Below, in pieces: positions 14,096 through 18,921 of a DNA stretch of 64,000 nucleotides. Under the pieces are notes generated by a model. It searched no databases. It had not been told where the DNA came from and saw nothing but the letters and a program-made list of their open reading frames with translations. The stretch covers positions 558,001 through 622,000 of the forward strand of contig NZ_FIZW01000002.1 of the NCBI RefSeq assembly GCF_900059565.1. The letters are read 5' to 3'. Position 1 is the first letter of the stretch. Every line of letters begins with the position of its first letter. The stretch comes from Murdochiella massiliensis (GTDB lineage Bacteria > Bacillota > Clostridia > Tissierellales > Peptoniphilaceae). A program made the position numbers and the translations under genes.

Positions 14096-14752
14096 GTGGC
14101 GACTGAGAATCAAAAAAGGACGTTCGCAAAGAACTTTAGTCATTACTTGGAGTTAAAGGGGATTACAAGGGCAGATGTATCTCGTTTGCTCGGTTACCCT
14201 GAAACCACTCTTGCTAACTGGGCGAACGGAGTGAATTATCCTCGGATTGACAAAATACAGGAACTGGCTGACTTTTTCGGCATTAAAAAGTCCGATCTCA
14301 TCGAAGATAAGATTGACGCCATCATCAACCGCCAACCCGATCTGCACCCAATCCACAAAATCCGAAGCGTCCCAATCCTCGGCACCATTGCCTGCGGAAC
14401 GCCCATCTGGGCGGAAGAAAACTTTGAAGGCTACGTCGGTATCGACCCGATGCACATGGACGGCGAGTTTGCCTTAATCTGCAAGGGAGATAGCATGGTG
14501 GACGCAAATATTCACAACGGCGACATTGTGCTGATGAAGAAAACATCGGATGTAGAAGATGGCAAGATTGCTGCCGTTTTAATCGAGGACGAGACGACGT
14601 TAAAGAAGGTCTACAAAAAAGAAAACCTGCTTGTCCTACAGCCATGCAACAGCAGCTACAGCCCTATCGTCTATAGCTATGATGAGGCAGAAGATAAGGG
14701 CGTCCAAATACTCGGAGAGTGCGTTGGAATATATCACGCAGTAAAGGAGTAA
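14096..14752 (+). CDS. CI-like repressor with S24 peptidase domain
   Basis: A 218-aa repressor starting at GTG 14096 behind GGAGG. The N-terminal HTH is at about residues 20-55 (ITRADVSRLLGYPETTLANW). The C-terminal LexA/S24 domain has the cleavage-site-like Ala-Cys-Gly motif (TIACGTPIW, about 98-106), the catalytic Ser in GDSMVDANI (about 131) and a Lys near ETTLKKVYKK (about 167). It maintains lysogeny and self-cleaves with RecA during DNA damage. It transcribes away from the lytic operon and shares its operators. Confidence 0.92.
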   Translation: MATENQKRTFAKNFSHYLELKGITRADVSRLLGYPETTLANWANGVNYPRIDKIQELADFFGIKKSDLIEDKIDAIINRQPDLHPIHKIRSVPILGTIACGTPIWAEENFEGYVGIDPMHMDGEFALICKGDSMVDANIHNGDIVLMKKTSDVEDGKIAAVLIEDETTLKKVYKKENLLVLQPCNSSYSPIVYSYDEAEDKGVQILGECVGIYHAVKE

Positions 14753-14803: not shown

Positions 14804-15325
14804 ATGAAAAAGAAATTGATCGCTTTAATGCTTTTGGCCGCGCTTTCTTTGACGGCGTGCGGAGGCGGAGAGCAGAAATCGTCCGAGGCGCCTGTTGCGC
14901 AAGAGTCGAGTTCAGAAGCGCCACAAGAGAAAGCATCATCCGAAGAATCAGCTGCTACTACAGAAACCACTGAGGCGCCGAAAGAATCTCAAACTGAGGC
15001 AACATCGTCTGAAGAGGTCCCGAGAGAGTACATCTCGGCATTAAATAAAGCGCAAACATACTCCGATATGATGCATATGTCAAAGCAGAAACTATATGAT
15101 CAGCTCACATCAGAATATGGAGAAAAGTTTCCAGCAGAAGCGGCACAATATGCCGTGGAGCACGTAAAAGCAGATTTCAAATTGAACGCATTAGAGCAAG
15201 CAAAAACTTATCAGAAGACAATGGATATGTCTTCGAGTGCAATTTATGACCAGCTCATTTCTGAATATGGGGAAAAATTCACTGAAGAAGAGGCGCAGTA
15301 CGCCGTAGACAACCTTCCAAAATAA
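14804..15325 (+). CDS. Ltp-family superinfection-exclusion lipoprotein
   Basis: A 173-aa lipoprotein: lipobox LTAC at residues 16-19, then a 55-residue Ser/Glu/Thr/Ala-rich linker, then two copies of the Ltp helix-turn-helix repeat (ALNKAQTYSDMMHMSKQKLY and ALEQAKTYQKTMDMSSSAIY). In Streptococcus thermophilus phage TP-J34, Ltp is expressed by the prophage and blocks DNA injection by incoming phages. Its place right after the CI gene in the lysogeny arm fits that function here. Confidence 0.85.
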   Translation: MKKKLIALMLLAALSLTACGGGEQKSSEAPVAQESSSEAPQEKASSEESAATTETTEAPKESQTEATSSEEVPREYISALNKAQTYSDMMHMSKQKLYDQLTSEYGEKFPAEAAQYAVEHVKADFKLNALEQAKTYQKTMDMSSSAIYDQLISEYGEKFTEEEAQYAVDNLPK

Positions 15326-15378: not shown

Positions 15379-15455
15379 AAGGCTATATGCCAACCAATGC
15401 ATTTTTAGTATATCATACCGCCTCCATGAAAGGAGGCTACCTTTATATCAAAAAT
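15379..15455 (+). repeat. Diverged copy of the integrase leader element
   Basis: The segment with CCAAC...TAGTATATCATA...GCCTCC-ATGAAA-GGAGGC matches the leader at 17192-17258 (CCAAC...TAGTGTATCACA...GCCTCC-GAAA-GGAGGC). Both end in a hairpin containing the GGAGG ribosome-binding site. The following bases (AAAAATCGCAT) also resemble the start of the integrase gene. It looks like a duplicated regulatory leader left after gene replacement. Confidence 0.5.
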
Positions 15456-15550: not shown

Positions 15551-15961
15551 ATGAGTTCTCGTAAAATTGTTAAAGGGTTTCGCATAAAAGAGATCATCAA
15601 TGAAACGAAATTAATCATTAATTACGGAATCGAAGATGGTGCCAGTGTCGGACAAAAAGTTATCATTTACGATGACATCTCAAAGAATAGCAACTCGAAC
15701 GTTGCCGATCCTCTTGAAACGCAAAAGGACACATTAGAGATAACACAGACATACATCAAGTCATCACTATGCGAAAAAATTCATCTTGGCCCTAGTCAGA
15801 TGGATATTATTGCCTCCAGTTTTAGTCCTCTTGTCCAATTATCTTCCCGATCAAAAAACGTTGTTGCTTTTAAGGCGGATGAAGAGGAAATGTCACATAG
15901 AGACATTGAATTTGATGCAACGATCCACAATAATGACCCAGTTATCATTTTATGTAACTAA
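15551..15961 (+). CDS. Unknown prophage accessory protein (136 aa), FlgT_C-like barrel
   Basis: Start ATG 15551 has GGAGGG upstream; the open frame begins earlier only through the CI remnant. The N-terminal half (RIKEIINETKLIINYGIEDG, then VGQKVIIYDD) resembles the small beta-barrel repeat found at FlgT C-termini and in many unannotated proteins. No signal peptide. It lies between an exclusion gene and an Abi gene, so a defence-related role is possible but unproven. Confidence 0.65.
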   Translation: MSSRKIVKGFRIKEIINETKLIINYGIEDGASVGQKVIIYDDISKNSNSNVADPLETQKDTLEITQTYIKSSLCEKIHLGPSQMDIIASSFSPLVQLSSRSKNVVAFKADEEEMSHRDIEFDATIHNNDPVIILCN

Positions 15962-15967
15962 TTCCTT

Positions 15968-15996
15968 TTGACGGTGTGACAAATCAATGCTACAAT
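15968..15996 (+). promoter_or_regulatory. Promoter for the AbiF-type RNA and gene
   Basis: TTGACG (15968-15973), a 17-bp spacer and TACAAT (15991-15996). Transcription should start near 16003, just before the structured RNA. Confidence 0.8.
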
Positions 15997-16002
15997 AAGA
16001 GC

Positions 16003-16077
16003 AGATAAGTTTGTCTAGGATTAAGTTCCAGACTATCGGGGAAATCCCTCCTGCTCTTGCAGGGGGGATTTCTTTTT
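16003..16077 (+). ncRNA. Structured RNA upstream of Abi_2 gene (abiF RNA motif candidate)
   Basis: About 75 nt between a good promoter and the Abi gene. Hairpin 1 pairs GATA/TATC (16004-16037) with an inner stem GTCT-GGA/TTCC-AGAC. A GGGG linker follows, then a second hairpin (AAATCCCTCCTGC / GCAGGGGGGATTT) ending in CTTTTT, a rho-independent terminator. A conserved RNA upstream of abiF genes is known (abiF motif, Rfam) and has been linked to RNA antitoxins for HEPN toxins. The match is by position and architecture; no covariance search was done. Confidence 0.65.
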
Positions 16078-16088
16078 AGGAGAAAGAA

Positions 16089-17090
16089 ATGGAATACGAT
16101 AAGCCGTTTAAGACATATGATGAGCTCTTAAATCATCTAGAAGAGCAATACGGACTAAATATTTCTAATCGCAAAACGGCAATTCATATTTTAGAAGCTG
16201 TCCCGTTTTATGACTTAATTAATGGTTATAAGGAATCCTTTTTAGACGCTAATGAAAAGTTTGCAGCACATCACAGTTTGGAACTTCTATATGCTTACCA
16301 TGAATTTGATCGCGGCTTTCAAAATATACTTTTTAAGTACTCCATTGACGTTGAGACCAAGTTTAAAAATATTATGGCATATCGGTTATCTGAACAATAC
16401 GGCGTTGAAGTCAGCGGATATTTAAATCCGGGAAATTTCAAAATACCGCACAATAAAAGACAAATGAATAAGCTAAAAACAACGCTTAGCGAAGCTTGGG
16501 ATAGGAATAGAGGAAAAGAAAATAATCCTACCAAATTCTATATAACAAATCACAACCATGTCCCAGCTTGGATTCTATTTAAAAATGTTCGCTGGAACAC
16601 TGTTTCCGACATATATCAGTTTCTAAAACCGGAAGATAAAAAGTATGTTTTAGATCGGATGCTAAAAGCCGATATTAAGCATGAACATATGAATCAGGTC
16701 TTTTCGAATGCGATGTATATCATCCGGAAAATGAGAAATCAAATCGCGCATAACGGGAAATTCACAACATACAGAGTCGACCATGCGCATGGATTGATTT
16801 TAAAACAAATCGAAGGTGAGTTTGGATCTACTTTACTATCAGGTGTCTATTCAACTGGTGATAATGTTTTTGCCATGATTTTGTCACTAATTCTTTTGCT
16901 TGGAGACAAGGGCAGGACTGCAAGAATGGCACTAGAAATTGAAAAATTGATCGAGTCTCAAATTTTTATTCCAGACTCAGTATCCAGGCAAAAATTCCAT
17001 GAGAATTCTATATGGCATCCGTATTCAAAGGTAACTGGGATACCAATAGATATTGTGCAGCGTTTTAAACTATATTTGACTAAAAAATAA
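16089..17090 (+). CDS. Abi_2 (AbiD/AbiF) family abortive-infection HEPN protein
   Basis: A 333-aa protein of the Abi_2 family (KPFKTYDELLNHLEEQYGL at the start, then YYDLINGY-like ILEAVPFYDLINGYKESFL). The HEPN RNase motif is present as RNQIAH at about residues 218-223. Family members cause phage-induced cell dormancy or death, probably by RNA cleavage; recent work places AbiF near the origin of Cas13. AGGAG lies 6 nt before ATG 16089. Translation needs read-through of the upstream RNA terminator, a built-in attenuator. Confidence 0.88.
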   Translation: MEYDKPFKTYDELLNHLEEQYGLNISNRKTAIHILEAVPFYDLINGYKESFLDANEKFAAHHSLELLYAYHEFDRGFQNILFKYSIDVETKFKNIMAYRLSEQYGVEVSGYLNPGNFKIPHNKRQMNKLKTTLSEAWDRNRGKENNPTKFYITNHNHVPAWILFKNVRWNTVSDIYQFLKPEDKKYVLDRMLKADIKHEHMNQVFSNAMYIIRKMRNQIAHNGKFTTYRVDHAHGLILKQIEGEFGSTLLSGVYSTGDNVFAMILSLILLLGDKGRTARMALEIEKLIESQIFIPDSVSRQKFHENSIWHPYSKVTGIPIDIVQRFKLYLTKK

Positions 17091-17191: not shown

Positions 17192-17258
17192 TATGGAGGC
17201 TGTTACACCAACATATGCGCATATAGTGTATCACAGCCTCCGAAAGGAGGCACTTTTT
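17192..17258 (+). promoter_or_regulatory. Integrase leader with competing ribosome-binding-site hairpins
   Basis: GGAGGCTGT (near 17193) can pair with ACAGCCTCC (near 17234-17242), while the same CCTCC can pair with the ribosome-binding site in GCCTCC-GAAA-GGAGGC (6-bp stem, GNRA tetraloop). The two are mutually exclusive, so translation of the integrase may be controlled. An in-frame ATG at 17193 could encode a 22-residue leader or N-terminal extension. Confidence 0.5.
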
Positions 17259-18374
17259 ATGCCTAAAAATCGCATAACCAAAAAGGCCGATGGGCGTTAT
17301 TACTACCAAACTACCGACGCGCAAGGAAAGCGCATCACCATCGGATCTTGGAAGAAGGAGAGCAAGCGCGACTTTGCCGTACGTTGCAACGAATTGGACG
17401 CTACCGCACATGGCGAAGCGCGAACAGATACATTTGATGAGCTCTTTCGGGAATGGATGCAACTGCACGTATTGCCTAATCTTTCCGCCGGCACAATCCG
17501 TACAGCCAAGGATTATTATGGGCGCTATGTGAAGCCTTTTATAGGCTCTCGGCGCATCACGGATATCAAACGCAAAGATGTCTTCAGATTGTTATCTAAA
17601 GCAAAGCAGAAGGGTCTGGCACCAACTACCATGAAGAAAATTCGCTCGACCATTTCTTCCCCGTATTCTTTTGCCATCAATTCGCTTGGTTATGAGATAG
17701 TCTCCCCGACAGAAGGTCTTGTCTTTGATTATGGAGGTAAGGCTAAACCAGCGCGCAAGCGCGTCATAAACGACAAGGACATCAAGAGGATTCAGAAGGC
17801 GGCGGAAGAGAGCAAATACAAGAATCTGATATATATACTGCTCTATACCGGCATGCGCCCAAGTGAAGCACTGGGACTAAAAGCATCAGATGTGCACGAT
17901 GGAAAAATCTACATCTGAAGAGGAGTGACACGAGACGGAATATCTACACTGAAAACGGCTGCAGCGCGTCGTGAATTCCCACTGTTTAAAGGCCTGCGTA
18001 GCGTGTTGGACGAGCAAATCAATATCGTCGGGCATAGTAGCTGGCTTTTTGCCACATATAACGAAATGCCAAGCATGATCGCCCTCATCAAGTCCTTCCG
18101 AAGGATTCTCCGCCGCACGGAAGTATGGGAAAGAGGCGGAAGAAATCATTTGAAAAAAATTAAACTGATAACGGCAGCCGTTGAATGCAGTCTCTATGAC
18201 TTCCGGCACACTTTTGCAACACGACAAGCCGAAGCTGGTATGAACCCTACCGTACTGCAAACCATCATGGGCCACGAAGATATTAAGACTACTTTGGAGT
18301 ATTATGTGGAGATTACTGACACTATGATGGAACAGGCAATCGACGTCCTGGAAAAGACGGTAGAAAAAAATTGA
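17259..18374 (+). pseudogene. Phage tyrosine integrase interrupted by an in-frame TGA
   Basis: The ATG at 17259 follows AAGGAGG. Domains in order: N-terminal AP2-like DNA-binding (residues 1-45), SAM-like core-binding (55-150) and the catalytic domain. The first catalytic Arg is in TGMRPSEALGL. A TGA at 17916-17918 stops the frame after KIYI; the same frame continues with RGVTRDGIS and reaches the catalytic tail with RHTFATR, MGHEDIKTTLEYY (active Tyr) before the true stop at 18374. A GTG at 17925 could restart the C-terminal part. Likely a CGA to TGA nonsense mutation, which would lock the prophage unless suppressed or complemented. Confidence 0.85.
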
Positions 18375-18458: not shown

Positions 18459-18465
18459 AAAGTTT

Positions 18466-18505
18466 CGTGCCATCGGGGATTCGAACCCCGGGCCTCCACT
18501 TCCGG
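18466..18505. other. Probable prophage attachment site in the tRNA 3' half
   Basis: Integrase genes next to the 3' end of a tRNA mark attachment sites; the phage restores the tRNA 3' end on integration. The core is inferred to lie in the T-arm/anticodon region. The matching copy should lie beyond the left edge of the window. Confidence 0.6.
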
Positions 18506-18537
18506 AGAGTGGCGCGCTTCCACTGCGCTAATGGCAC
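18466..18537 (-). tRNA. tRNA-Arg (anticodon CCG)
   Basis: A full cloverleaf on the minus strand: acceptor GTGCCAT/ATGGCAC, D-arm GCGC/GCGC, anticodon arm CCACT/AGTGG with loop CTCCGGA (anticodon CCG, reads CGG), T-arm with GGTTCGAAT, discriminator G. CCA is not encoded. The integrase gene lies at its 3' end. Confidence 0.95.
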
Positions 18538-18669
18538 ACGATGGCTTAAGAGCCGCGTTCAGTTCATGAACAGCCCACGACCGGCAAACAAAACGCCTGT
18601 GTTTACCTCATAAAAAGCACACGATACGCCCCAGCCTGTCGTTCCATTTTAAACGATGCAGGTTGATTT

Positions 18670-18921
18670 TGCAACGCAGGAAACATGCAACACAAGAGGC
18701 ATCTTTGCAACACATAAGATGTCTTTGCAACGCAGGAGGTATCTTTGCAACACAAGAGATGTCTTTGCGACGTAAGAGGCATCTTTGCAACACATAAGAT
18801 GTCTTTGCAACGCAGGAGGTATCTTTGCAACACAAGAGATGTCTTTGCGACGTAGGAGGCCTGCAACACAAGAGATGTCCTTGCAACGCAGAAAGCGTCT
18901 GTGCAATGCAGAAGGCGTTAA
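18670..18921. repeat. 20-bp tandem repeat array with 80-bp higher-order unit
   Basis: About twelve units of 20 bp share TGCAAC-CA-AGAG--TCTT. Four unit types follow each other as an 80-bp block (18706-18785) that is repeated almost exactly from 18786. Open frames crossing it are a by-product of the repeat. It lies between the tRNA and a small membrane-protein gene. Function unknown; it is probably unstable by slippage. Confidence 0.85.

What the first reader, a model, noticed from the sequence alone, without database searches (positions are those of the whole stretch)
15968..17090. AbiF-type Abi_2 HEPN protein preceded by a structured RNA that ends in a terminator
A clear promoter drives a 75-nt RNA with two hairpins, the second a terminator, directly before an Abi_2 protein with the RNQIAH HEPN motif. 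This matches the architecture of the abiF RNA motif, proposed to be an RNA antitoxin and linked to Cas13 ancestry. In a prophage it would act as anti-phage defence, and the terminator sets an RNA excess over protein.
Basis: partly seen in the sequence, partly recalled or inferred. Interest (0 to 1): 0.8.

Follow-up and report, generated by a model that had tools for sequence, protein, structure and literature searches.

The report
Phage RNA–toxin switch with self-complementary terminator
A dormant virus in a bacterium carries a toxin gene headed by a tiny RNA that probably holds the toxin in check, and in this branch of the family the RNA's stop signal is complementary to its own start-up DNA, which suggests a switch that makes toxin only when transcription arrives from upstream.

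Summary
A sigma-70-type promoter (15968-15996) precedes a ~75-nt RNA with a 5' hairpin and a strong terminator, then an SD and a 333-aa Abi_2 protein with R216NQIAH221. The protein is an AbiF (only PDB fold match PbAbiF-ncRNA 8VZ6), in a 34.7-kb prophage at tRNA-Arg. But the RNA is NOT the Rfam abiF motif: no RF03085 match even at E<=10, while a second Abi_2 in the same genome does have one. Related prophage AbiFs share the layout, usually right behind a conserved small FlgT_C-like gene. New finding: in this clade the terminator's 5' arm plus loop is complementary to the locus's own -10/discriminator region (34 loci: own 9.8 vs swapped 5.7, z=16); the matched segment lies upstream of the RNA's own start. 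Generic promoter-terminator units, ToxN loci and RF03085-type RNAs lack it. Most likely this is a type III-like RNA antitoxin/HEPN toxin module with an origin-sensing attenuator: self-initiated transcripts terminate and yield antitoxin, transcripts from upstream lysogeny genes can form an antiterminator and yield toxin mRNA. Toxin/antitoxin function is inferred from homology; the switch from co-variation and folding.

The parts
15968..15996 (+). sigma-70-type promoter TTGACG-17-TACAAT driving the leader RNA
   Evidence: the same position relative to the RNA is kept in relatives
15997..16004 (+). segment X (AAGAGCAG), just after the -10 box and before/at the predicted start; complementary to the terminator apex
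16003..16077 (+). predicted ~75-nt non-coding RNA (putative RNA antitoxin)
   Evidence: ends predicted, not measured
16013..16033 (+). hairpin 1, core UAGGAUUAAGUUCCAG (16016-16031) conserved in L003 with stem change GUC/GAC to GGC/GCC
16041..16077 (+). intrinsic terminator (stem-loop 16041-16072, U-tract to 16077)
16051..16058 (+). segment X' (CUGCUCUU), upper 5' arm and loop of the terminator, complementary to X
16078..16082 (+). Shine-Dalgarno AGGAG directly behind the terminator U-tract
16089..17090 (+). AbiF/Abi_2 HEPN protein, 333 aa
   Evidence: Pfam Abi_2 3.2e-29, PADLOC AbiD 4.6e-39, AF2 pLDDT 90 with only PDB match 8VZ6
16734..16751 (+). HEPN active-site motif R216-N-Q-I-A-H221
   Evidence: invariant R, N, A, H in 48 relatives
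15551..15961 (+). conserved upstream small gene (FlgT_C-like beta protein), stop codon 6 nt before the -35 box
14804..15325 (+). Ltp-type superinfection-exclusion lipoprotein in the same lysogeny gene block
   Evidence: Pfam PF07553 7.6e-48, phrog_4980
14096..14752 (+). LexA/cI-type prophage repressor (HTH + S24), same strand, upstream
17193..18374 (+). tyrosine integrase, split by an in-frame TGA at 17916-17918
18465..18538 (-). tRNA-Arg(CCG), attachment site; second copy of its 20-nt 3' end lies 34.7 kb to the left, outside the window

Best explanation
A prophage-borne AbiF toxin / RNA-antitoxin module (type III-like) with an origin-sensing terminator. (1) Transcripts that start at the module's own promoter contain hairpin 1 and end at the terminator; they yield a short RNA that should bind the AbiF dimer and silence its HEPN RNase site [inferred from AbiF/AbiFr and AbiFCd/RCd22]. 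(2) The -10/discriminator sequence X lies upstream of this start, so it is absent from that RNA, but it is present in any transcript arriving from upstream, i.e. from the repressor-lipoprotein-small-gene block that ends 6 nt before the -35 box [complementarity and position are shown; the transcript is inferred]. (3) In such transcripts X pairs with X' (5' arm plus loop of the terminator) before the 3' arm is made, delaying terminator folding and letting polymerase read into abiF [pairing and barrier computed; effect inferred]. The antitoxin:toxin ratio would thus depend on where transcription begins: RNA alone from the own promoter, toxin mRNA when the lysogeny block is transcribed. Free AbiF would cut RNA and stop growth, for phage exclusion and/or prophage retention [inferred].
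For: AbiF identity. Layout conserved across relatives. Co-varying complementarity: 41 loci with separate terminator, own 8.99 vs swapped 5.40, z=17, 0/20000; 10 further phage/plasmid loci, own 8.45 vs 5.81, 0/50000; protein clade of the window, 34 loci, z=16.2, own terminator best or tied for 23. Position: enrichment only in windows covering the -10 to start region; in an unrestricted scan 34 of 35 strong matches end before about start+3, and 5% of X nucleotides fall in the self-initiated RNA. X' lies in 5' arm (248 nt) and loop (110), hardly in the 3' arm (30). Nascent long RNA forms 8.3 X:X' pairs vs 2.9 with swapped X; barrier to the terminator fold median 10.4 vs 4.7 kcal/mol, window 14.3. 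Co-directional upstream gene within 150 nt: mean score 9.6 (39 loci) vs 6.7 (12). Specificity: RF03085-type leaders n=10 p=0.66, 14 generic promoter-terminator units p=0.62, 12 ToxN loci p=0.92.
Against: No experiment; start sites are predicted. At equilibrium the complete terminator beats X:X' in nearly all loci, so any antitermination must be kinetic, and in the window X' covers only the top of the 5' arm, leaving a long lower stem free. Some clade members lack a clear match (L009, L190; L003 and L129 weak). For the window alone the 8-nt match is not decisive (1.7% of random 30-mers score as high). A phylum-wide third sample gave only 5 usable loci, own 6.8 vs 5.9, p=0.16. Promoter and terminator positions of the 10-locus set were picked by eye. 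A first control set was contaminated by redundant Abi loci and by two other RNA units that also show the pattern.
Confidence: 0.55

Rival explanations
1. Plain AbiF/RNA-antitoxin module: the terminator only sets a constant RNA excess; the terminator/-10 complementarity has no regulatory role in this locus.
For: Protein family, layout and known biology suffice; terminator thermodynamically dominant; window match alone modest.
Against: Does not explain co-varying complementarity in 34 clade members, its sharp position, and its absence from three kinds of control.
Confidence: 0.2
2. Trans or DNA-level feedback: X' of the released RNA (or of an AbiF-RNA particle) pairs with the non-template -10 strand in the open complex, or with X in long transcripts, and represses the promoter or destroys the transcript.
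For: X' is antisense to the promoter strand exposed in the open complex and lies partly in the loop, where antisense pairing would start.
Against: 38% of X nucleotides lie upstream of the -10 hexamer, outside the melted region by general knowledge; most of X' is locked in the stem of a stable hairpin; no HEPN-RNA particle known to me acts on DNA.
Confidence: 0.12
3. The leader is a cis attenuator only (riboswitch-like, sensing a phage or stress signal through hairpin 1) and not an antitoxin.
For: Terminator directly before the SD; Saunier et al. propose riboswitch-like read-through for RCd22 as well (PMC12373285).
Against: In both studied AbiF systems the leader RNA binds and neutralises the protein; hairpin 1 core is kept at 16/16 nt between proteins 39-41% identical, as expected of a protein-bound RNA.
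Confidence: 0.08
4. Degenerate remnant: the prophage is decaying (integrase with an in-frame stop) and the module is no longer functional here.
For: In-frame TGA in the integrase.
Against: Promoter, RNA, SD, ORF and active site are intact and conserved in this locus.
Confidence: 0.05

Closest known systems
AbiFCd / RCd22 of C. difficile phi027 and phiC2 (Saunier et al. 2025, PMC12373285)
   Same: Abi_2 HEPN protein, SigA-type promoter, leader RNA ending in an intrinsic terminator before abiF, prophage location; RNA shown there to neutralise the toxin in cis and trans; conserved R and H needed for toxicity. The phiC2 leader also shows a moderate -10/terminator complementarity (score 8.0).
   Different: RCd22 carries two RF03085 motifs (37.6 and 19.5 bits), sits between holin and endolysin, and its protein is in another clade. 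The window has no RF03085, one non-Rfam hairpin, and sits between repressor genes and integrase.
PbAbiF / AbiFr (PDB 8VZ6; described in PMC12737573)
   Same: Same protein fold (TM 0.69/0.77) and family by profile (E=4e-9).
   Different: RNA of another type; no data held here on its promoter-terminator relation. The primary paper (Zilberzwige-Tal et al.) could not be read.
RF03085 abiF RNA (Rfam)
   Same: Short RNA before an Abi_2 gene; second Abi_2 of this genome has one (41.1 bits).
   Different: RF03085 is a single hairpin, in these genomes itself followed by the U-tract; the window RNA does not match at any usable threshold nor do 20 relatives.
Type III toxin-antitoxin systems of the ToxIN kind
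   Same: RNA antitoxin, terminator, RNase toxin in one transcription unit.
   Different: ToxN is not HEPN; its RNA is a repeat array; 12 ToxN loci show no -10/terminator complementarity.
Staphylococcus phage phi575 lysogeny region (KY389063)
   Same: cI/LexA repressor - small gene - abi - integrase order as in the window; 8-nt exact -10/terminator complementarity (TAATGCCA).
   Different: No Ltp gene between; different hairpin 1.

Membership tests
AbiF/AbiD (Abi_2) HEPN protein family | Abi_2 profile match over cut-off | tested here: met
   103 bits vs cut-off 25.6; PADLOC AbiD
AbiF/AbiD (Abi_2) HEPN protein family | R-x4-H HEPN motif with conserved R and H | tested here: met
   R216NQIAH221, R/N/A/H invariant in 48 rows
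AbiF/AbiD (Abi_2) HEPN protein family | AbiF fold | tested here: met
   AF2 pLDDT 90.2; 8VZ6 the only PDB match below E 0.001
AbiF/AbiD (Abi_2) HEPN protein family | RNase activity and toxicity | not testable with these tools
   known for AbiFCd (toxicity) and PbAbiF (RNase) from papers
RF03085 abiF RNA | covariance-model match at gathering score | tested here: not met
   no hit at gathering or E<=10; positive controls L040 and L182 are found
Type III (RNA-protein) toxin-antitoxin system | RNA gene directly upstream of toxin, terminator between them, shared promoter | tested here: met
   (promoter and ends predicted)
Type III (RNA-protein) toxin-antitoxin system | RNA binds and neutralises the toxin | not testable with these tools
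   inferred from RCd22 and AbiFr
Terminator/antiterminator attenuator | alternative pairing of the terminator 5' arm, kept by compensatory change | tested here: met
   complementarity kept across loci of unlike sequence
Terminator/antiterminator attenuator | antiterminator can outlast terminator folding | tested here: inconclusive
   barrier about 10 kcal/mol, but the terminator wins at equilibrium
Prophage | integrase, repressor, att repeats at a tRNA, phage genes | tested here: met
   viral-contig record identical to this part of the window

The most novel reading that the evidence does not exclude
The 3' segment of the leader RNA (X') is a proto-guide: a hairpin followed by a segment antisense to transcripts that run through the module's own promoter, so that an AbiF-RNA particle recognises and cuts, or is triggered by, upstream-initiated transcripts. 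That would be a self-targeting, guide-like use of an AbiF RNA before Cas13.
Probability: 0.07. Interest if true: 0.93.

Novelty: new variant of a known kind. Interest (0 to 1): 0.7.

Why it matters
AbiF is the proposed ancestor of Cas13, and its RNA partner is known so far mainly through RF03085 and two studied systems. This locus belongs to a widespread prophage clade whose leader RNAs are not in Rfam, and in which promoter and terminator co-vary. If the origin-sensing reading is right, it answers how a toxin with a terminated antitoxin leader is switched on, a point the C. difficile study left as speculation, and shows a simple regulatory logic (start-site-dependent termination) that I did not find described for toxin-antitoxin modules in the papers I could search. 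If a guide-like reading were right it would bear on the origin of crRNAs. Both are testable with standard reporters.

Tried and rejected
RF03085 membership: rejected. Weak Rfam hits (PyrR 31.5 bits vs cut-off 54, others) rest on the terminator hairpin and are rejected. DNA search for the 15/16-nt hairpin core: outside the window's own prophage and L003 no hit lies next to an Abi_2 gene, so the core is specific to the window/L003 pair. Second promoter on the opposite strand inside the terminator: no -35 seen, dropped. Direct repeat instead of complement: lower (6.8 vs 9.5). General property of promoter-terminator pairs: rejected; of RNA-antitoxin systems at large: rejected for ToxN. A partner-gene scan of viral contigs could not be run.

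Full report
WHAT IS THERE. The window is part of a 1.64-Mb genome; a same-genus genome is a Peptoniphilaceae MAG. Bases 16089-17090 encode a 333-aa Abi_2 protein. Before it lie a promoter TTGACG-17-TACAAT (15968-15996), a predicted 75-nt RNA (about 16003-16077) with a small hairpin (16013-16033) and a strong terminator (16041-16077), and an SD. The fold of the whole is far better than shuffles (z=-5.0) because of the terminator; hairpin 1 alone is not (z=-1.1). Its support is comparative: the nearest relative, L003 (39-41% protein identity), keeps TAGGATTAAGTTCCAG without a change, has a different but paired outer stem, and a terminator of unrelated sequence in the same place.

SETTING. The genes around it are a LexA/cI-type repressor (14096-14752), an Ltp-type superinfection-exclusion lipoprotein (14804-15325), a small gene (15551-15961), the RNA and abiF, and a tyrosine integrase (17193-18374), all on the + strand. 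The integrase abuts tRNA-Arg; a second copy of the tRNA 3' end lies 34.7 kb away, which fixes the prophage ends. A viral-contig record is identical over this part. Staphylococcus phage phi575 has the same order repressor - small gene - abi - integrase.

PROTEIN. A profile of seven relatives finds PbAbiF (8VZ6) as its only PDB match (E=4e-9). The AF2 model (pLDDT 90) matches 8VZ6 and nothing else with E below 0.001. R216, N217, A220 and H221 are invariant in 48 Abi_2 proteins. In a tree of these 48, the window falls in a 14-row set (support 100/99) within a large group of 34 mainly prophage proteins; proteins whose leaders carry RF03085 (phiC2, the second Abi_2 of this very genome and, judged by eye, Listeria phage LMC) form a separate supported group (RF03085 tested, LMC leader read).

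THE RNA IS NOT RF03085. No match at the gathering score in the window nor with E up to 10 in the region; none in 20 relatives. The test works: the genome's other Abi_2 leader scores 41.1 bits and phiC2 37.6. RF03085 leaders in these genomes have the conserved hairpin directly followed by the U-tract; the window type has a separate hairpin and terminator. Hairpin 1 differs between subclades; in a set of 11 relatives of the phage type it shows 8 pairs, 3 with changes on both sides.

NEW OBSERVATION: THE TERMINATOR IS COMPLEMENTARY TO ITS OWN PROMOTER. Reading the leaders side by side showed that the 5' arm and loop of the terminator repeat, as reverse complement, the -10 region of the same locus, although sequences differ between loci: window AAGAGCAG/CTGCTCTT, L010 TAAGTATAATG/CATTATACTTA, L116 AAAGCAGTAA/TTACTGCTTT, L126 CAAATGGTAAGA/TCTTACCATTTG. 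Swapping terminators among loci is the natural test. With 24 loci: 10.5 vs 6.1, 0 of 20000 permutations. With 41 non-redundant loci with separate terminators: 8.99 vs 5.40, z=17. With 10 phage and plasmid loci taken afterwards: 8.45 vs 5.81, 0 of 50000 (promoter and terminator set by eye there). By protein group: 34-row group z=16.2; the window's own 14-row set z=8.1; the other group with separate terminators, 11 loci, z=5.6; RF03085 and similar leaders, 10 loci, z=-0.3. A further 5 loci from a phylum-wide draw gave 6.8 vs 5.9, p=0.16. For the window alone the match is only suggestive (1.7% of random 30-mers do as well).

POSITION AND SPECIFICITY. Only windows that cover the -10 box to the start are enriched; windows farther up or anywhere in the RNA are at zero. 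In an unrestricted scan from -45 to the terminator, 34 of 35 strong matches end by about start+3; 38% of matched bases lie before the -10 box, 28% in it, 28% in the discriminator, 5% in the RNA. X' is in the 5' arm (248 nt) and loop (110 nt), hardly in the 3' arm (30 nt). Fourteen generic promoter-terminator units from 1.2 Mb of related genomes show nothing (5.57 vs 5.67), nor do 12 ToxN loci (4.83 vs 5.26). An earlier control set was unclean: it contained redundant Abi leaders and two other RNA units beside Abi genes that also show the pattern.

THE UPSTREAM GENE. In most loci of the group the promoter begins at the stop codon of a small gene; in several the stop TGA lies inside TTGACA. These proteins form one family, weakly like FlgT_C (12 of 26 members, best 2.2e-5; top Foldseek match FlgT, E 0.03, pLDDT 78). 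In 199 genomes of the order it occurs at 7 places, 6 of them directly before abiF. Loci with a co-directional gene close upstream have stronger complementarity (9.6 vs 6.7). So a transcript of the lysogeny block would run straight through X into the RNA.

MECHANISM. Shown: the complementarity, its position outside the (predicted) self-initiated RNA, its strand and place in the terminator. Computed: in a nascent upstream-started RNA that ends at the terminator loop, X pairs with X' (8.3 pairs vs 2.9 for swapped X); going from there to the terminator fold costs a median 10.4 kcal/mol vs 4.7, window 14.3; at equilibrium the terminator wins except in two loci. Inferred: antitermination of upstream-started transcripts, hence toxin mRNA; termination of self-started ones, hence antitoxin RNA. 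The sharp edge at the start site is what such a switch requires and is not explained by promoter-strand pairing alone, since over a third of X lies upstream of the melted region. Neutralisation of AbiF by the RNA is inferred from RCd22/AbiFCd and AbiFr/PbAbiF. Anti-phage action or prophage retention is inferred.

KNOWN OR NEW. The kind of system is known (AbiF with RNA antitoxin). Not found in the library searched: any mention of an antiterminator or of promoter-terminator complementarity in AbiF systems (the Saunier paper has no such term and offers a signal-sensing riboswitch-like read-through as speculation). The structural paper on PbAbiF was not available. I therefore call it a new variant of a known kind: non-RF03085 leader, linked small gene, and a co-varying promoter-terminator pair.

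Noticed in passing
window 17916-17918: The prophage integrase is interrupted by an in-frame TGA (the catalytic half to 18374 stays open in the same frame); the viral-contig copy is identical, so the prophage may be unable to excise by itself.
   Followed up: partly
window 14804-15325: Ltp-type superinfection-exclusion lipoprotein in the same gene block as AbiF: two anti-phage genes side by side in a lysogeny region.
   Followed up: partly
L002/L040 (G000:C2:366254-366968): A second Abi_2 gene in the same genome with a canonical RF03085 RNA: one cell carries both leader types.
   Followed up: yes
L021 1240-1110 (- strand); L157 1337-1460: Further promoter / two-hairpin / terminator units near Abi genes that are not Abi_2 leaders themselves but also show terminator/-10 complementarity (score 10.5 each); possibly other RNA-antitoxin systems.
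   Followed up: no
many genomes: RF03085 hits at exactly 38.1 bits recur in about 25 genomes, four times in G109; most were not checked for a neighbouring Abi_2 gene.
   Followed up: no
L008 (G041:C1:912402 and 949115): Two copies of the small gene plus abiF module 36.7 kb apart with equal scores, perhaps tandem prophages.
   Followed up: no
window 18686-18906: Tandem array of a 20/40-bp unit (TGCAACGCAGGAGGCATCTT...) just outside the prophage end, next to tRNA-Arg.
   Followed up: no
window 15428-15454 and 17242-17268: Similar 27-nt stretches (GAAAGGAGGC...) in front of the small gene and the integrase, the latter with a GGAGGC/GCCTCC inverted repeat.
   Followed up: no
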